Notes under the pieces: model-generated
The model's database searches: none
Told to the model about the DNA's origin: nothing
What the model saw: the letters and a program-made list of their open reading frames with translations, nothing else
Virus record (IMG/VR): IMGVR_UViG_3300027969_000001
Location: 1 to 64,000 of that record
Length of the DNA: 64,000 nucleotides
Strand: one strand, 5' to 3'
From: a virus
Program-made: the position numbers and the translations under genes
Shown: in pieces, positions 5,927 to 31,880 of the stretch
How positions within the stretch are numbered: the stretch's first letter is position 1
Layout of the letters: every line of letters begins with the position of its first letter

Positions 5927-6121
5927 TTACTTAAACTCAATCCCATCCCAGGTTAAACCTTCTTGTATTGGTTCTTCTACTGGAATAAAAGTTGGATTAC
6001 TTGAAAATATGGCTACCCATTTCTCATCTTCTTCTTTAAAACAGTAATTACCAGCAACTTCGCCATCTACAACTGCAGCAAAACACTGCATTTTAACTTC
6101 TCGCAGAATTTGCTCACTCAT
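5927..6121 (-). CDS. Small acidic hypothetical protein
   Basis: A 64-residue protein, last gene of a three-gene leftward operon. Its ATG overlaps the stop of the upstream gene (ATGA), so it is probably translationally coupled. The sequence has alternating strands and acidic loops (KEEDEKWVAIF, PVEEPIQEGLTWDG) and no recognisable domain. Confidence 0.6.
   Translation of the reverse strand: MSEQILREVKMQCFAAVVDGEVAGNYCFKEEDEKWVAIFSSNPTFIPVEEPIQEGLTWDGIEFK

Positions 6122-8851: not shown

Positions 8852-8855
<4 letters not shown>
8697..8855 (-). CDS. Small tail-fibre-associated protein with [10 protein letters not shown] motif
   Basis: A 52-residue protein. The phrase [16 protein letters not shown] followed by an acidic tail with Trp recurs in small proteins next to phage fibre genes. 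Its ATG overlaps the stop of the collagen-like fibre gene by 4 bp (ATGA). Coupling to the fibre gene suggests a fibre assembly or trimming function (inference). Confidence 0.6.
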
Positions 8856-10240
<1,385 letters not shown>

Positions 10241-10901: not shown

Positions 10902-11650
10902 CTTATTTTCTTTTCTTTTTCAATAGCCTTATCTACCCTGGTCCGCTCTCTCCTATAAGGGGCGGCAGTTCCGTCATGTGGCGCTATGTGCCCCATGCCA
11001 AAACCGGTTGTTGCAACATATTTGAAATACGACTCATCATTAAAGACAATTTCTGAAAAATCAGAATCACGTTTAAAAGGTACCAATTGAGCAATTGGCG
11101 TTCCGACCTTGATTGCAAAAGCCGCATCTCCAGTTATGTTAAGAACGATGTTAGCAAGATGATAATAGTCAGTATTTACTATTGCTGGAATAACGGTAAA
11201 GTTAGCATTGGGCTCCCAATGTAACGGCAACACAAGTGTCGACCATCCCGGAGCTGTTTCAAATCGCCATGGATTTACAAGTTTTGGATATTGTCCAGTC
11301 TCGATGTCTCTCATGTCTGTCATGGGGCAAGAGCCAGTTGATTCATAAGAAAAACCCTGAACACTGCTTATGCCTGCAGGAGGGCTAAAGTCGTCTCCAC
11401 CAGTTTCCCATGCTCCATGACCATCAGGCCTGAATCTATAGTTTGTCCAAAGTGGAAGCGTTACGCCAGCAGCAAGATAATCAATAGTTCCAGCACAACG
11501 CCGAAGCGAGCCTTGATGTTTCCCTATTCGCCTAAACCACGAAGGTTGATTAATAATCTCATTAATAAATGGGGCAAACTCCATCAATCTATTATCGGTC
11601 GGCGTAAATCTAATTTGTCCAGGTTTTACTGCAGGGAGTTTGTGACTCAT
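10886..11650 (-). CDS. Conserved hypothetical protein next to the halogenase (DUF6065-like, tentative)
   Basis: A 254-residue soluble protein with a beta-rich centre (TAPGWSTLVLPLHWEPN, FTVIPAIVNTDYY) and a PIAQLVPF segment. This reminded me of dUTPase/dCTP-deaminase-like beta folds and of the DUF6065 proteins seen near flavin halogenases, but I cannot confirm either. The ATG overlaps the halogenase stop (ATGA). Association with the halogenase suggests a substrate or partner role. Confidence 0.55.
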   Translation of the reverse strand: MSHKLPAVKPGQIRFTPTDNRLMEFAPFINEIINQPSWFRRIGKHQGSLRRCAGTIDYLAAGVTLPLWTNYRFRPDGHGAWETGGDDFSPPAGISSVQGFSYESTGSCPMTDMRDIETGQYPKLVNPWRFETAPGWSTLVLPLHWEPNANFTVIPAIVNTDYYHLANIVLNITGDAAFAIKVGTPIAQLVPFKRDSDFSEIVFNDESYFKYVATTGFGMGHIAPHDGTAAPYRRERTRVDKAIEKEKKIRWPKK

Positions 11651-13191
11651 TTATACAACCATTCTTCGTCTGTGGATGTTAATTCTCTAAGAGCAGTTGC
11701 ATGGTCAACCAATTCATGATTGTGACGATTCTGTCTCATCTTGTCAATTTCGTAAAAAATTGCTTCGCGCAAAACCATCATGTTCATGGCTCTAGTGCAT
11801 GCGTCTTTGCTAATTAATCCCTGCCCTTGAGCCACGTGAGCTATGTGTGGTGTTTGAAAAAGCTCACCAGAACTGTTTTCAAAGTCATAGCGCGATGGTG
11901 GGCGCTCAGACCATAGTTCTATCAATTCTTGCAATTCGTCGTTTACTGGCATGTTAGACATTGCTTCCCAAAAAGGAGAGTCTTTTCTATCTGTGTGATA
12001 GTGCAGACGAATCATAGTGAGAATGTTTCGCATCATCTTTTCAAAACCTTTATTAAAATGCTTTTGCGAAGCAGTATGTCCAGGAGCGTATGACGCTATA
12101 TAGGATATGGCTTGACGGACTTGTTGAATAGTTGAACCAATACTTGTAGCTTCAAGCGGTTCAACAAAAGAAGAAGCAAGACCTATGGCCATACAGTTCT
12201 TTACCCATACATTTTTTAAATAGCCAGCATCAAAGGAAATGACCCGAGGGTTGTCAATCTTATAGCCACTCATTTTTTCAGCTTCGATAACGGCATCTTC
12301 TGCAGATATGAAATCAGAAGAAAATACATAACCGTTACCACGGCGTTCCTGTGTTGGAATTTCCCACATCCAGCCAGAAGATGCTGCTCGCGCTCTGGTG
12401 TATGGGCGGATTCGACCATTTGGGTCGCTTTCGGTTGGAAAAGCAATAGCAGTATTGCTAAGTAGATACTTATTAAAAGACACCCATTCGTCGTTGCCTA
12501 GTTTATTCATTAGCACCCTAGAAAATCCGGAAGCGTCAAACCAAAACGAGGCCGATACTTCGTCTCCTTGAGATGTTGTTATCGTATTGATATTTCCTGT
12601 TTCGGAATCAAGAATTACTTCGGCCACTTCTCCGTCAACAAACTTAATATTGCGGCTAAATGCTAACGACGTAAAAAATTCATTCAATTTAAAAGTGTCA
12701 AAATGAAATTGATTAGTACTCTTATGCAACCCAGCACGGGGTATTTTATCTTTGACTATTCCGACACTGGATGTATTAGGCGTAAATAATCTGTCTTGTT
12801 CAAGAAGGCCCATATAAACACCAAATAGACCAAAAGCAAAAATGTCATCTACGGCACCAACGCTATGAAAATAGTCAGTATTTTTTGTATGCCAATTTTC
12901 GTAACGAATACCGTATTTGTGTGTAGCTGATGTAGCTATGAGCAGGTCGTCAAGTGGTATCTCACACATGTCCATAAATTGACGCCAATGTTCAGTAGAG
13001 CCTTCACCTACACCAATGATGCCTATCTTTGAAGATGATATGACCGTTACGTCGGACAAGGGAAATGCACGCCTCGCCAAAATAGCAGCAATCAATCCAG
13101 CGGTTCCGGAACCAACAATTGCAATGGGTTCTGGTTTTTGAGATACCGTCCGAAGGTTAATTAAATCTTGGTTAGTTACCATGTCTGACAT
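11647..13191 (-). CDS. Flavin-dependent tryptophan-halogenase homologue
   Basis: A 514-residue protein. An FAD-binding GxGxxG lies at 27-32 (VGSGTAGLIAA), followed by GVGEGST. The catalytic lysine equivalent is K92 in ATHKYGIRYENW. The family signature W-x-W-x-I-P is at 274-279 (GWMWEIP). A PLEATSIG segment corresponds to PLESTGI. The enzyme class uses reduced FAD, O2 and halide to make hypohalous acid that reaches the catalytic Lys. Phage homologues include cyanophage VirX1, an iodinating enzyme. FADH2 must come from a host flavin reductase. It overlaps the upstream gene by 20 bp. Substrate unknown; a virion protein or free indole are both possible. Confidence 0.9.
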   Translation of the reverse strand: MSDMVTNQDLINLRTVSQKPEPIAIVGSGTAGLIAAILARRAFPLSDVTVISSSKIGIIGVGEGSTEHWRQFMDMCEIPLDDLLIATSATHKYGIRYENWHTKNTDYFHSVGAVDDIFAFGLFGVYMGLLEQDRLFTPNTSSVGIVKDKIPRAGLHKSTNQFHFDTFKLNEFFTSLAFSRNIKFVDGEVAEVILDSETGNINTITTSQGDEVSASFWFDASGFSRVLMNKLGNDEWVSFNKYLLSNTAIAFPTESDPNGRIRPYTRARAASSGWMWEIPTQERRGNGYVFSSDFISAEDAVIEAEKMSGYKIDNPRVISFDAGYLKNVWVKNCMAIGLASSFVEPLEATSIGSTIQQVRQAISYIASYAPGHTASQKHFNKGFEKMMRNILTMIRLHYHTDRKDSPFWEAMSNMPVNDELQELIELWSERPPSRYDFENSSGELFQTPHIAHVAQGQGLISKDACTRAMNMMVLREAIFYEIDKMRQNRHNHELVDHATALRELTSTDEEWLYK

Positions 13192-15596: not shown

Positions 15597-17501
15597 CTAA
15601 ACGTTTAGCAAGACGTATGCACTACCGGATGATGCTGAATAGTTATCAGCGTCAGCCGTAAGTCCTGCTCTTGTGTCGTATGTAATCGTATCAGCTATTG
15701 AGTCTGTAAGCAAGAGTATTGAGCCGCCGCCTCCAGCCCCTCCACGCTTGCCAGTAGAACCAGTCGCTCCAGTTCCGCCAGCGCCACCTGCGCCACCTGC
15801 CCCTCCTGTGCCACCTGCTCCACCAGAACCGCCTGCTCCACCAGAACCGCCTGCTCCACGTAATTGACCCAACCCACCAGCACCGCCTGCATAATGACTT
15901 GGGTGAACATGGTAAGTATGAGGAGCAACATGGTGGTGATGCCATGTTGGAGAAGTGGTTGGGTGATGGGCATGAGTGTGGCTATGGTGAGGCAAGCCAA
16001 AGTGAGCATGAACGTGACCGTCGTGCCCACCAAAAGAACCGTGATAAACCCCCGAGTGATGATAACCGCTTCCGTCTCCATGACTATGTCCACCATGTCC
16101 GTTTGGTTTTTGATGATAGTGAGGGAATGGATATCCATGACTTAATTGGAAATAAGCATGCCACCAATGACCATCCCAGTGATGCGCTCCTCCATGTGGA
16201 CCGTCATTGTGAGGATGGTGATAATGCCCATCATGATGATGGTGCGGGGTTGCGTGAGTGTAGTGATGCCCTTTTGAATGAGCACCAGTATGTGCTCGCG
16301 TGGAGTGGGCATGCCTATCTGAATGGTTATTATAATGATGATGATGCGAATAGTTTCTAGCATCAGGGTTTGGATGTGAGCCGTCCGGGTTGGGGTGAGT
16401 AAGGCTGGGAGCGGCAGCTCCATCTGGACCAAAGCTGGAACCAGTTGGATGAGTGCCAGGACTACCTGGAGAACCATGACCACCAGGGGTGCCAGAGGCT
16501 CCAGGGGTGCCAGAGGCTCCAGTAGTACCAGGAGAACCAGTTGCTCCCGGGCTGCCAGCAGAACCGGCAGAACCAGACATGCCGAGGGACACAAACTTTC
16601 CTGAACCTGATATTTTTTTAGCAATTACACAAACAATTCCACCGCCCATGCCGCTAGTTCCGCCAGCACCGCCAGTACCGCCAGCACCAGGTGAACCACT
16701 TGCACCACGACTTCCACTTGCACCAGATACGCCAACAGAGCCAGGACTTCCACTTGCACCAGGACTTCCACTTGCACCAGATACGCCAACAGAGCCAGGA
16801 CTTCCACTTGCACCAGGACTTCCACTTGCACCTTGTGAACCTGGGTTGCCTCGTCCACCAGGAGCATTAACCGTTGTTGCGTTTGGAGGATATGCACCAG
16901 TAGCACCAGCCGCACCAGGGGTTCCAGCCGCGCCAGGACTGCCGGTAGCACCAGGACTGCCACTTGCGCCAGGACTTCCAGTAGCACCAGGACTTCCTGT
17001 AGCGCCAGCTCCAGTAGCCCCCGAATCCCCAATGGAACCAGTTGTTCCCCTAGAGCCACCAGCCATAGGAAGAACTCCGAGCGTTGGGTCCATCATCATC
17101 CCGCCAGACATTGCATTAATGTCTTTATATAAGAACGACGGTAATGCCGTTACTCCAGGACTAGTTCCGCCTCCGCCTTGACCACCAGTTCTGTATGTTA
17201 TTGCGCCACTTGTGTGTCCCTTTAAGCTTGCGTTTGCGACTGCAGATGCGGGTTCACCAACAACTCCAGCAGATACGGAACCGATTCCGATATACCCATT
17301 GTTGGTCAATGTGTTTTTTACAAAAACCCTGTATCCATTTGTATTTAAAAATATGCCAGAGCTAATAGTCAGATTGTTGTAGTACATATCCGACGTAATT
17401 GTTGTATCTGATGTAATAGTTACGTCACCGTCAGCACCAGTTCCGTAAACGGCATCGTTTGCCGTACGGGAAACATTTGCTTCAATTCTTGATACTGCCA
17501 T
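15597..17501 (-). CDS. Collagen-like, histidine-rich, glycine-rich adhesin
   Basis: A 634-residue modular protein. Residues 1-75 form a beta domain shared with the next gene (DAVYGTGADGDVTIT...NGYRVFVK). Collagen-like triplets occur at about 150-280 and 310-352, many GSP or GTP with Pro in the Y position. Residues 384-536 contain about 52 His, mostly as HxH or HH. At 538-594 is a Gly-rich block (GGAGGSGGAGG) like the polyglycine II tips of T4 gp38-type adhesins. HxH motifs in the T4 gp37 needle hold iron ions, so a metal-stabilised tip is plausible. Downstream in the same operon are a prolyl-hydroxylase-like enzyme and a halogenase. Confidence 0.8.
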   Translation of the reverse strand: MAVSRIEANVSRTANDAVYGTGADGDVTITSDTTITSDMYYNNLTISSGIFLNTNGYRVFVKNTLTNNGYIGIGSVSAGVVGEPASAVANASLKGHTSGAITYRTGGQGGGGTSPGVTALPSFLYKDINAMSGGMMMDPTLGVLPMAGGSRGTTGSIGDSGATGAGATGSPGATGSPGASGSPGATGSPGAAGTPGAAGATGAYPPNATTVNAPGGRGNPGSQGASGSPGASGSPGSVGVSGASGSPGASGSPGSVGVSGASGSRGASGSPGAGGTGGAGGTSGMGGGIVCVIAKKISGSGKFVSLGMSGSAGSAGSPGATGSPGTTGASGTPGASGTPGGHGSPGSPGTHPTGSSFGPDGAAAPSLTHPNPDGSHPNPDARNYSHHHHYNNHSDRHAHSTRAHTGAHSKGHHYTHATPHHHHDGHYHHPHNDGPHGGAHHWDGHWWHAYFQLSHGYPFPHYHQKPNGHGGHSHGDGSGYHHSGVYHGSFGGHDGHVHAHFGLPHHSHTHAHHPTTSPTWHHHHVAPHTYHVHPSHYAGGAGGLGQLRGAGGSGGAGGSGGAGGTGGAGGAGGAGGTGATGSTGKRGGAGGGGSILLLTDSIADTITYDTRAGLTADADNYSASSGSAYVLLNV

Positions 17502-20810: not shown

Positions 20811-23618
<2,808 letters not shown>

Positions 23619-29017: not shown

Positions 29018-29569
29018 ATGTCGGTTATTCACAAACAGATGGAGTCTTCAATGGCACGCAAATACACTGGCAATACTGATGGAAATTCAGGCAAAGCTCT
29101 TCCAGGAACACAAAAGCTTTTAGAACTTTGTGGGAAAAGATGGGGTTTTACGAACCTGGGGATTTGGGCCAATAGGTCGATGAAAAATCCTAAGGCGATT
29201 CCTGGTGACCCAAAATGGTTGAGCGTTCACGCAACTGGACGTGCCGTTGATATGGGCTACACAGACCGTAAGAAAGCGGTAGAGGCTTGGAATTGGTTCC
29301 TCGCTAACACTGCGGCGCTTGGTATCGAAGAGATGCATGACTATGCTTTTGATAAAGACAAAGCAGACAAAGAAGCTGGCTGGGGTCGCGGTTACAGATG
29401 TTCTCGCGGCGAAGGCTCAGACCCTAAATCGGTCAAGATTTATGATGAAAATGATAATGCTGGCTCGCAAGGCGGGCATTGGCTGCACATAGAACTTTCT
29501 CCAGAGATGGGCAAAGACGCAACCAAGTTTGAGGCTGCATGGCGCGCCCTTCCAAAGCCTGGTGCATGA
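29018..29569 (+). CDS. Endolysin, peptidase M15-like
   Basis: A 183-residue protein with the M15/VanY zinc pattern: S69-V-H71 and D78 in SVHATGRAVDMGY, and HWLHIEL with H154 and H157 near the end. Such enzymes cut peptide cross-links of peptidoglycan. No cell-wall binding repeat is visible. RBS AGGTAGGA precedes the ATG; an internal Met at residue 12 is possible. The neighbours are small membrane proteins, forming the lysis module. Confidence 0.75.
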   Translation: MSVIHKQMESSMARKYTGNTDGNSGKALPGTQKLLELCGKRWGFTNLGIWANRSMKNPKAIPGDPKWLSVHATGRAVDMGYTDRKKAVEAWNWFLANTAALGIEEMHDYAFDKDKADKEAGWGRGYRCSRGEGSDPKSVKIYDENDNAGSQGGHWLHIELSPEMGKDATKFEAAWRALPKPGA

Positions 29570-29575
29570 TTCCGA

Positions 29576-29803
29576 ATGGAAGCAATTACAGTTGCTCTCA
29601 TAACGGTAGTCGGTGCCGTGCTAGTTGCCCTTGTTGAAAAAGGACGACGTGAAAACAAAACCGACCATGGAGTCGTTTCTGAAAAACTTGACATGATTGG
29701 TAAAAACTTAGGTCGCTCAATTGACCGCGTAGAAGCAACCGTTGTTCGTAACGAAGTAAAACTAGATGAGCATATTCGTGACCACGCAAAAGGGGATGTC
29801 TGA
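29576..29803 (+). CDS. Membrane-anchored coiled-coil lysis accessory protein (DUF2746-like)
   Basis: A 75-residue protein: one N-terminal membrane helix (ITVALITVVGAVLVALVEKG), then a coiled coil (VSEKLDMIGKNLGRSIDRVEATVVRNEVKLDEHIRDH split over two helices). Actinophages often have such a protein after the endolysin, called a holin or spanin-like factor. The C-terminal phrase DEHIRDHAKGDV is repeated as a remnant about 1.4 kb downstream. Confidence 0.65.
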   Translation: MEAITVALITVVGAVLVALVEKGRRENKTDHGVVSEKLDMIGKNLGRSIDRVEATVVRNEVKLDEHIRDHAKGDV

Positions 29804-30033
29804 TGGCAGGCAAGAAACCAGCAAAGAAATCAGCAAGTTCAAGTGCGGTAGCACCAACACCTAAGGTTGATACAGGAATAAATGTTTTGTATCTCGGATA
29901 CAAGGGTGTGAAGCATGTTTGCCCTGTATGCAACAGTTGGCGCGGCAAAGGCATGGTTCGTGAATACAAGTCTGTTCTCTATTGCAGTATTGGTTGTGTT
30001 ACTTCTTTCAAGACCATTTCAGAGGGAAACTAA
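29803..30033 (+). CDS. Small zinc-ribbon protein, copy 1 of MAGKKP pair
   Basis: A 76-residue protein: basic, disordered N-terminus (MAGKKPAKKSASSS), then HVCPVCNSWRGKGMV and LYCSIGCVTSF, a four-Cys zinc site. The ATG overlaps the upstream stop (TGATG). A diverged copy lies at 31024, part of a duplicated block. Confidence 0.65.
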   Translation: MAGKKPAKKSASSSAVAPTPKVDTGINVLYLGYKGVKHVCPVCNSWRGKGMVREYKSVLYCSIGCVTSFKTISEGN

Positions 30034-30128
30034 TGAAAAAAGATTTGTTGGTTAATGTCCTTTTACGAATTCTTGCAACTTTTGCCGCATCTGGTCTGGG
30101 CGTTATCGGTGCAGGAACTTTGGATTGA
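30033..30128 (+). pseudogene. Truncated copy of the holin-like gene at 31548
   Basis: The first 29 codons (MKKDLLVNVLLRILATFAAS then GLGVIGAGT) match the start of the intact 110-residue membrane protein downstream. The frame then runs LD-stop at the point where the aminopeptidase gene begins. The intact copy continues IAGVPVWKS. It is a broken duplicate, cut at the insertion point. Confidence 0.75.
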
Positions 30129-30991
30129 CCAAGACCTATGTTGAGCGTTCCTGACCACATTGTGAAGCCGCCGTACGCAGAGACTGGCAAGGTCACGCGC
30201 TGGCAGGAATCTGCTGTGAAGTCCCCTGAAATTATTGAACGCATGCGCATTGCGTGTTCTGCTGCTGCCGAAGTACTACGCCTTGCAGGAGAATTTGTTC
30301 GTCCAGGAATAACCACCGATGAAATTGATGTGTATGTGCATAACTTGTGCATTGAGCGTGGTGCATACCCGAGCCCATTGAATTATTCGGGCTATCCAAA
30401 GAGTGTGTGCACTTCAGTGAACGAAGTGATTTGTCATGGAATTCCCGATTCACGCGTGTTGCAAGACGGTGACATCATTAATCTTGATGTCACCACATAC
30501 ATGAATGGCGTTCATGGCGACACCAATGCAACATTTGCGGTAGGCGAGATTGACGACGAGAGCCGCAACCTAATTTCTGTAACCGAAGAGTGCACATGGC
30601 GCGGCATTGAAGCCGTTGTTCCTGGTCGCCCACTAAGTGACATTGGAAAAGCCATTGAAACCCGAGCAAAACAAGACCAAATGAGCGTTATTCGCGCCTT
30701 TATTGGTCACGGTATTGGCGAGCAGTTCCACACCGATATTCAGGTGCTGCACTACTACGACAAGAGCAACAATACAATAATGCGACCTGGCATGACATTC
30801 ACGATTGAGCCGATGATTTCACTTGGCACATGGCAGCACCGCATGTGGAACGACGGCTGGACAGCAGTCACTGCAGACGGCAAGCGCACCGCGCAATTTG
30901 AACACACCGTGTTGGTCACTGAAACTGGTGTTGATGTATTGACAGGTGGACCAATCACCAAAGGGAAAAAATGAGAGTATGGATTGACCAA
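30121..30991 (+). repeat. 12-bp direct repeat flanking the aminopeptidase gene
   Basis: TGGATTGACCAA occurs at 30121-30132 and 30980-30991, immediately outside the two ends of the map gene. It may be a target duplication or the crossover site of the event that placed the gene here. Confidence 0.7.
30138..30974 (+). CDS. map: Methionine aminopeptidase, type I
   Basis: A 278-residue enzyme that removes N-terminal Met from nascent proteins. All five metal ligands are present: D117 (INLDVTTY), D128 (VHGDTN), H191 (FIGHGIG), E224 (TIEPM) and E255 (QFEHT), plus the substrate His in VICHGIP (H100). The N-terminal extension (VPDHIVKPPYAETG) matches actinobacterial cellular enzymes, implying capture from a host. 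It lies inside a duplicated phage module and interrupts one copy. A phage-borne enzyme could aid virion protein maturation or resist host deformylation/peptidase limits (inference). Confidence 0.93.
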   Translation: MLSVPDHIVKPPYAETGKVTRWQESAVKSPEIIERMRIACSAAAEVLRLAGEFVRPGITTDEIDVYVHNLCIERGAYPSPLNYSGYPKSVCTSVNEVICHGIPDSRVLQDGDIINLDVTTYMNGVHGDTNATFAVGEIDDESRNLISVTEECTWRGIEAVVPGRPLSDIGKAIETRAKQDQMSVIRAFIGHGIGEQFHTDIQVLHYYDKSNNTIMRPGMTFTIEPMISLGTWQHRMWNDGWTAVTADGKRTAQFEHTVLVTETGVDVLTGGPITKGKK

Positions 30992-31024
30992 CACATTCGT
31001 GACCACGTAAAGGGAGATGCCTGA
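30971..31024 (+). pseudogene. Remnant of the DUF2746-like gene C-terminus
   Basis: An 18-codon frame, MRVWIDQHIRDHVKGDA, whose last residues copy the end of the gene at 29576 (LDEHIRDHAKGDV). Its ATG overlaps the aminopeptidase stop and its stop overlaps the next ATG. It is the left end of the second module copy. Confidence 0.7.
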
Positions 31025-31275
31025 TGGCCGGTAAAAAACCAACAAAAGCTATTGCTACCCAAAACAAGCAAAAAGCAGTACTTGACCCTGCAATCTACGG
31101 AATTAGCGTAAAATACATAGGTACCAAGTCATCCCCGTGCCCTTGTGGTGAATGTGGGAGAAACATGGTTAGGGGAATGATAAGACTAAGAACGAATGAT
31201 TATTTTTGTTCAGAAGTCTGCGCATTTAACTCGCATCTTAAAAACACCAAGACACAAGAAAGTACAATCTCATGA
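31024..31275 (+). CDS. Small zinc-ribbon protein, copy 2 of MAGKKP pair
   Basis: An 83-residue protein: MAGKKPTKAIAT start, then SSPCPCGECGRNMVRGMI and YFCSEVCAFN. Compared with copy 1 it has an extra Cys pair in the first knuckle. The ATG overlaps the upstream remnant stop (TGATG). Confidence 0.65.
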   Translation: MAGKKPTKAIATQNKQKAVLDPAIYGISVKYIGTKSSPCPCGECGRNMVRGMIRLRTNDYFCSEVCAFNSHLKNTKTQESTIS

Positions 31276-31487
31276 GAAAATTGTCACCAGAAGAGAGAGC
31301 GGCAAAGCGCGCTCTTACAGAAACAGCAGCACCAGTAGCGGAAGCAACTTCTAAAAAATCTAAGAAAAAAGAAGTAGTCGAAGAAGCCGTACCTGCAGAA
31401 GAAGCCGTACCTGCAGAAGAAGCCGTAGCCGAAGTTGCTCCAGCAACAGAAGAAGAAGTATCAGTAAAAGAAGAAGCTGCTGAATAA
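31272..31487 (+). CDS. Low-complexity charged protein
   Basis: A 71-residue protein: a basic N-terminal third (SPEERAAKRAL, KKSKKKE), then an acidic Ala/Glu repeat (EEAVPAEEAVPAEEAV) encoded by an 18-bp tandem DNA repeat. It overlaps the upstream gene by 4 bp. Probably disordered; unknown role. Confidence 0.55.
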   Translation: MRKLSPEERAAKRALTETAAPVAEATSKKSKKKEVVEEAVPAEEAVPAEEAVAEVAPATEEEVSVKEEAAE

Positions 31488-31547
31488 AACTTCCTGTTAG
31501 GAAAGTTTCAGTAATCAATTTCTTTAAACAAACAGGACAACCATAAG

Positions 31548-31880
31548 GTGAAAAAAGAGCTTATATCCAGCATTTTAATGCGAATACTAGCTACTTTTGC
31601 CGCATCTGGTCTTGGTGTCATAGGTGCCGGCACAATAGCTGGCGTGCCTGTTTGGAAGTCTGTATTTATGGCTGGTCTTGCTGGCGTAGCAACTGTCATA
31701 GAAGGTCTTTCTCGAGCCTTCCTAGATGATGGAAAACTAACCGCATCAGAAATCAATGCTGTCTTCTCTCGCTTCGATAAAAAAGATGTATCAGATAGTG
31801 AAGTTGCCAAAAAAGAAGAAGCAACTAACGCTCGTAAAAGAAAAGCAGCCGAGACAACTACTTCTACTGTAGAACAATAA
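31548..31880 (+). CDS. Holin-like membrane protein with DDGKLTASEI segment
   Basis: A 110-residue protein from GTG (RBS AAGG). Two hydrophobic segments (LATFAASGLGVIGAGTIAG; SVFMAGLAGVATVIEGL) are followed by AFLDDGKLTASEINAVFSRF, a loop resembling an EF-hand, and a charged tail. Proteins of this plan are common holin candidates in actinophages. It is the intact version of the truncated gene at 30033. Confidence 0.65.
   Translation: MKKELISSILMRILATFAASGLGVIGAGTIAGVPVWKSVFMAGLAGVATVIEGLSRAFLDDGKLTASEINAVFSRFDKKDVSDSEVAKKEEATNARKRKAAETTTSTVEQ

What the first reader, a model, noticed from the sequence alone, without database searches (positions are those of the whole stretch)
29560..31880. Methionine aminopeptidase inserted in a duplicated lysis-region module
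The block (membrane coiled-coil end, MAGKKP zinc-ribbon, holin-like protein) occurs twice. In the first copy the holin-like gene is cut after 29 codons where map begins, and 12-bp repeats TGGATTGACCAA flank map. A host gene has been captured by duplication and insertion.
Basis: seen in the sequence. Interest (0 to 1): 0.68.

Follow-up and report, generated by a model that had tools for sequence, protein, structure and literature searches.

The report
Mobile host aminopeptidase gene among phages
A lake-water phage carries a methionine aminopeptidase gene taken from a freshwater actinobacterium; the gene is a small passenger that has spread among many unrelated phages, mostly by landing on the start of a phage ferredoxin gene whose first bases are the repeats seen here.

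Summary
In detail: map (30138-30974) lies between two exact copies of TGGATTGACCAA, a cut holin-like gene and a second coil-end/MAGKKP/holin block. The 12 bp are codons 4-7 (WIDQ) of a phage ferredoxin (fdx) gene. The same map, 95-100% identical, sits in at least six upstream and six downstream contexts in viral contigs. In most it interrupts the 5' end of fdx, leaving a 31-nt direct repeat, and flank-matched empty sites exist. Freshwater Ilumatobacteraceae (acIV) chromosomes give the capture breakpoints: 7 bp of shared sequence with fdx on the left, and about 10 bp with gene X, a phage gene that precedes fdx, on the right. The SEC-C N-terminus was lost; purifying selection (dN/dS 0.07) keeps the enzyme. 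An unrelated small gene uses the same fdx site. Four of eight phage records examined, the window's included, encode a Rad52-like annealing protein; none a tyrosine or serine recombinase. Best reading: a host gene captured by microhomology, then spread by short-homology recombination between fdx starts, reaching the window's lysis region secondarily. Only the window assembly crosses map there, so a chimeric join is not excluded.

The parts
29576..29803 (+). coil: short membrane/coiled-coil protein, complete first copy
   Evidence: phrog_32850 E 4e-12; about 90% identical in single-block relatives L303-L305, L316
29803..30033 (+). ZR1: MAGKKP zinc-ribbon-like protein, first copy
   Evidence: 41% identical to ZR2
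30033..30128 (+). holin', truncated holin-like gene (31 aa; about 29 homologous codons)
   Evidence: intact relatives read GGAACT-ATTGCTGG where the window reads GGAACT-TTGGATTGACC
30121..30141 (+). left arm: 21 bp of ferredoxin 5' end (TGGATTGACCAAGACCTATGT); its last 7 bp (CCTATGT) are the left capture microhomology
   Evidence: fdx starts in over 100 viral contigs; host alignment
30138..30974 (+). map: type I methionine aminopeptidase, 278 aa; host-derived through about 30949, last residues from gene X
   Evidence: PF00557 3.9e-51; TIGR00500 1e-89 above cut-off; host junctions
30940..30949 (+). TGACAGGTGG: right capture microhomology between host map and phage gene X
30950..30979 (+). 3' tail of gene X (..PITKGKK*) overlapping a new ferredoxin start ATGAGAGTA
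   Evidence: same arrangement, gene X directly before fdx, in L013, L037, L064, L065, L084, L098, L112, L025
30980..30991 (+). right arm: TGGATTGACCAA, ferredoxin codons 4-7
   Evidence: fdx continues here in L001, L009, L379; replaced here by coil in window/L381 and L056/L380, and by another gene in L008
30992..31024 (+). coil'': last codons of a second coil gene, fused in frame (MRVWIDQ-HIRDHVKGDA*)
   Evidence: relatives' coil reads CTTGACCAACA[CT]ATTCG, sharing TTGACCAA with fdx
31024..31275 (+). ZR2: second MAGKKP zinc-ribbon-like protein
31272..31487 (+). K/E-rich small protein
31548..31880 (+). intact holin-like protein (phrog_26427 3.5e-23; phrog_443 holin 1e-7)
   Evidence: 65-77% identical relatives

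Best explanation
A phage of freshwater Ilumatobacteraceae captured the catalytic part of the host map gene by microhomology recombination in front of its ferredoxin gene: 7 bp (CCTATGT) joined it to codons 8-10 of fdx on the left, and about 10 bp (TGACNGGYGG) joined it to the last codons of the upstream gene X on the right. Because the two breakpoints overlap, gene X's end and the fdx start were duplicated, so map became flanked by direct repeats of the fdx 5' end while fdx kept a start codon. This made it portable: recombination between short fdx-start homologies, probably by the Rad52-like annealing protein these phages encode, inserts map in front of fdx in any phage that has fdx. In the window's phage, which has no detectable fdx, the cassette sits in the lysis region; its right end joins a coil gene through 8 bp (TTGACCAA), its left end a holin gene with almost no homology. 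Translation of map is probably coupled to the short reading frame ending at its start. The product probably trims N-terminal methionine from abundant phage proteins. Shown by sequence: host origin, junctions, multiple contexts, empty sites, conserved catalytic residues, purifying selection. Inferred: which recombinase, translational coupling, and the benefit.
For: The cassette with its repeats is 95-100% identical in viral contigs with unrelated flanks, and homology stops at the repeats. Filled versus empty sites: upstream homology runs to base 6003/6004 of L001, L011, L012 and L014, then switches to map; L001 against L028, L181, L206, L214 (no map) shows a 31-nt overlap. Host breakpoints; host SEC-C PF02810 present in L219, absent in phage. 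Phage MetAPs form one clade beside freshwater Ilumatobacteraceae. dN 0.012, dS 0.179 between phage copies. A second gene (MNHD) is inserted at the same site with 20-25 nt overlaps in three contexts that have empty partners. Rad52-like PF04098 in G000, G009, G008, G017; RecA in G005. PMC3945230 reports minimal pairing of 23-27 bp for Red-beta.
Against: No read data, so the window's join of left and right flanks rests on one assembly; contigs L010 and L381 match each side but end inside map. The exact perfect homology is 17-22 bp in several pairs, at or below the published minimum. The first capture could have used any end-joining route. A homing-type or site-specific enzyme is not excluded: an HNH gene lies about 2.3 kb upstream of the cassette in one phage.
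Confidence: 0.72

Rival explanations
1. The fdx 5' end is a true site for a site-specific recombinase or a homing-type nuclease, which inserts cassettes there, integron-like.
For: Two unrelated genes (map, MNHD) use the same site; L001 carries both in tandem, L056 map then coil''-ZR-holin then fdx. Codons 5-8 of fdx show high synonymous conservation (0.87-1.0, most other positions lower). HNH gene near the cassette in G005.
Against: No PF00589 or PF00239 in eight records; the cassettes carry no recombinase; the right junctions in window, L056 and L008 are microhomology joins to coding sequence; repeat length varies (20-31 nt) with the cassette.
Confidence: 0.17
2. In the window the left and right flanks of map belong to two phages and were joined by the assembler, so the duplicated block is partly artefact.
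For: map is shared by many phages, and at least nine contigs break inside it, most of them about 100 nt from an end; no second contig crosses map with the window's flanks.
Against: Each junction is seen in an independent contig at 99.7-99.98% (L010 left, L381 right); gene order across the join (endolysin-like, coil ... holin, p33, phosphoesterase) matches single-block relatives.
Confidence: 0.2
3. One reading: map was inserted in place while the lysis block duplicated.
For: Two blocks flank map.
Against: Blocks are strongly diverged (ZR1/ZR2 41%); both map ends carry ferredoxin and gene-X sequence, and no fdx was found in this phage's record.
Confidence: 0.06
4. Each phage captured map independently from its host.
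For: map is a host gene.
Against: All copies share the same two breakpoints, the same gene-X tail and one clade.
Confidence: 0.02

Closest known systems
Type I methionine aminopeptidase of Ilumatobacteraceae (SEC-C-bearing, e.g. L219)
   Same: Catalytic domain 94-96% aa identical, metal ligands kept
   Different: Phage form starts at an internal methionine, lacks the SEC-C motif, and its last residues are replaced by 7 from a phage gene
Morons and auxiliary metabolic genes of tailed phages
   Same: Single extra host-derived gene in a phage genome
   Different: Carries fdx-derived direct repeats and is dispersed at one homologous site; no promoter or terminator signal above chance
Mobile regulatory (PeSL) cassettes of T4-like phages (Arbiol 2010, Comeau 2014; cited in PMC4503421)
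   Same: Short repeated sequences around genes serve as homology for shuffling
   Different: There the repeats are promoter-stem-loop elements; here they are the coding start of ferredoxin
Mycobacteriophage MPME elements (PMC3029335)
   Same: Small elements present or absent in related phages, one inserting near a gene's 5' end
   Different: MPME1 is 439 bp with inverted repeats and a 6-bp addition; here direct repeats, and the only gene is a MetAP
Integron gene cassettes
   Same: Genes added at a fixed site, sometimes in tandem (L001, L056)
   Different: No integrase found in eight records

Membership tests
Type I methionine aminopeptidase | Above curated cut-off of TIGR00500 / PF00557 | tested here: met
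   300 bits against cut-off 171; 174 bits against 23
Type I methionine aminopeptidase | Five metal ligands D, D, H, E, E | tested here: met
   NLDV, HGDTNATF, GHGIG, TIEPM, FEHT present and aligned with solved 8yp6
Type I methionine aminopeptidase | Enzyme activity | not testable with these tools
   dN/dS 0.07 implies selection on function
Phage moron / host-derived auxiliary gene | Nested within a host lineage, absent from close phage relatives | tested here: met
Integron cassette | Integrase (tyrosine recombinase) in the system | tested here: not met
   PF00589 absent in eight records, several incomplete
Integron cassette | attC-type folded site at cassette ends | not tested
   Repeats are coding sequence of fdx; no folding test was run
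Transposon / MPME-like element | Terminal inverted repeats and transposase | tested here: not met
   Only direct repeats at the ends; sole ORF is MetAP
Homing endonuclease element | Nuclease gene inside the insert | tested here: not met
   Only map inside the insert
PeSL mobile regulatory cassette | Promoter plus terminator stem-loop at the joints | tested here: not met
   Consensus scan at or below chance, none at the joints; organism-specific promoters not covered

The most novel reading that the evidence does not exclude
The start of the phage ferredoxin gene is a dedicated docking site: a family of freshwater phages assembles tandem arrays of captured genes there (MNHD, map, coil''-ZR-holin), each insertion restoring the ferredoxin start, by an enzyme not yet identified, in effect an integrase-free cassette platform.
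Probability: 0.2. Interest if true: 0.85.

Novelty: new variant of a known kind. Interest (0 to 1): 0.62.

Why it matters
It is rare to see both breakpoints of a host-to-phage gene capture at base level, together with the ancestral-type insertion site, empty sites and later spread in natural phage populations. It gives a concrete route by which a captured gene becomes mobile without any mobility gene: by being framed with a fragment of a widely shared phage gene. It also makes methionine aminopeptidase a selected phage function in abundant lake bacteria, and warns that contigs breaking in such shared genes are easily mis-joined.

Tried and rejected
Ferredoxin in the window's own 158,714-bp record: none found. 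Peptide deformylase beside map as a maturation pair: none in eight records. RecT, ERF, tyrosine and serine recombinases: none; AAA_24 gave only sub-threshold matches. Idea that diverged map genes precede fdx in many phages (the ..TGGPITK tails): rejected, these tails belong to gene X, unrelated to map. Annotated phages: MetAP only under 60% identity and no fdx match. Papers on phage MetAP, freshwater acIV phage ferredoxin or SEC-C MetAP: none held. No structure prediction was run because sequence similarity to solved MetAPs is decisive. No folding test of the repeats was run.

Full report
Observation. The map gene (30138-30974), the flanking 12-bp repeats (30121-30132, 30980-30991), the cut holin-like gene and the second coil-end/MAGKKP/holin block are all present. 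The repeats are the only matches in the window, even at one mismatch. The protein is a type I methionine aminopeptidase above curated cut-offs, with the metal ligands in place.

What the repeat is. A search for map in viral contigs brought 14 loci; in ten of them the match is map at 97-100%. Compared with the window, homology begins and ends at the repeats. Four loci (L004-L007) carry a different, 73-76% identical MetAP with other flanks and lack the repeat. In most map loci whose right side is seen, the downstream repeat runs on into an open reading frame MRVWIDQDLCTGDGLCAEIAPDVF..., a single-cluster ferredoxin (PF13459). TGGATTGACCAA is therefore codons 4-7 of fdx. A pattern search found over 100 viral contigs with this fdx start, and the upstream sequences of fdx fall into 49 clusters without detectable similarity to each other.

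Mobility. Left flanks of map fall into six contexts: window/L010 (holin), L001-L003 (MNHD gene), L011, L012, L013, L014. Right flanks also fall into six: window/L381 and L056/L380 (two different coil-ZR-holin blocks), L001, L379 and L009 (fdx), L008 (inside a phrog_3704 gene). For L001, L011, L012 and L014 contigs exist with the same upstream sequence and an uninterrupted fdx. Alignment ends at the map ATG, and against the L001 sites that lack map the two flanks overlap by 31 nt, the length of the duplicated fdx start. A second, unrelated small gene (MNHD) is inserted at the same place with 20-25-nt overlaps in L181, L206 and L214, with empty partners L041/L114, L125 and L102. In L001 MNHD and map stand in tandem.

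Capture. Freshwater Ilumatobacteraceae/acIV chromosomal map genes are 94-96% identical at the protein level; the closest sampled host is 88% at the DNA level. Phage copies form one supported clade beside them. Host L219 reads AGCCCTATGTTGAGC where fdx reads AGACCTATGTACT: the left join is at CCTATGT. On the right, host TTGACTGGCGG and gene X GTGACCGGTGG share about ten bases, and the phage gene continues with gene X's last codons and then fdx. Gene X directly precedes fdx in several phages, and in L013 gene X, the fdx remnant and map stand in that order, as the original insertion would. The host protein has an N-terminal SEC-C motif (PF02810), which the phage form lacks because it starts at an internal methionine. 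Between two phage copies dN is 0.012 and dS 0.179, so the enzyme is under purifying selection.

The window. No fdx was found in the window's record. Its right junction follows from coil genes that read CTTGACCAACA[CT]ATTCG in relatives, sharing TTGACCAA with fdx; its left junction joins holin at GGAACT with little homology. L056/L380 have the same right junction followed by ZR, holin and fdx. Relatives of the window phage have one block and no map. The two zinc-ribbon copies are only 41% identical, which argues for foreign origin of one block, not recent duplication.

Mechanism. No tyrosine or serine recombinase, RecT or ERF was found in eight records, but a Rad52-like annealing protein (PF04098) is present in the window's record at 134528-134914 and in three others, and RecA in G005. 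Rad52-like phage recombinases act on short and divergent homologies, with a reported minimum of 23-27 bp for Red-beta (PMC3945230). Spread by short-homology recombination at the fdx start is the economical reading. The remaining doubt is whether something also cuts there: codons 5-8 are unusually uniform, and one HNH gene lies about 2.3 kb upstream of the cassette in G005.

Caveat. Many contigs end inside map because it is shared. L010 matches the window's left side at 99.7% over 20 kb and L381 the right side at 99.98% over 9 kb, but only the window contig crosses. The conclusions on capture and spread do not depend on it: L001-L003 cross the whole cassette.

Function (inference). map follows a short frame that stops at or just before its start codon, so coupled translation is likely. 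Extra MetAP would help remove N-terminal methionine from abundant phage proteins. No deformylase accompanies it.

Noticed in passing
L028, L181, L206, L214 (about 180 nt before fdx): Small His/Cys-rich membrane-like gene (MNHDHSS...) fused behind the ferredoxin start (MKVWIDH-MNHD), present or absent at the same site in several phages: a second cassette.
   Followed up: partly
L056 103-883; L380: map, coil'', ZR, holin and fdx in a row, the insert framed by two ferredoxin starts.
   Followed up: partly
viral contigs: Ferredoxin is widespread in these phages (513 relatives) yet gives no match among 50,697 annotated phage records.
   Followed up: no
L391 7985-8623; L008 right flank: Gene filed as 'ferredoxin' in phrog_3704 has no Pfam ferredoxin domain; it lies near fdx and is the gene cut in L008.
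   Followed up: no
window 11647-13191 (minus strand): Flavin-dependent halogenase-like gene (by eye, GSGTAGL motif); a similar gene lies upstream of the cassette in L389.
   Followed up: no
window 8852-10240, 15597-17501, 20811-23603 (minus strand): Long collagen-like GXT/GXP repeat proteins, one with a His-rich stretch, probably tail fibres.
   Followed up: no
G000 134528-134914: Rad52-like annealing protein in the window's own phage, outside the window.
   Followed up: partly
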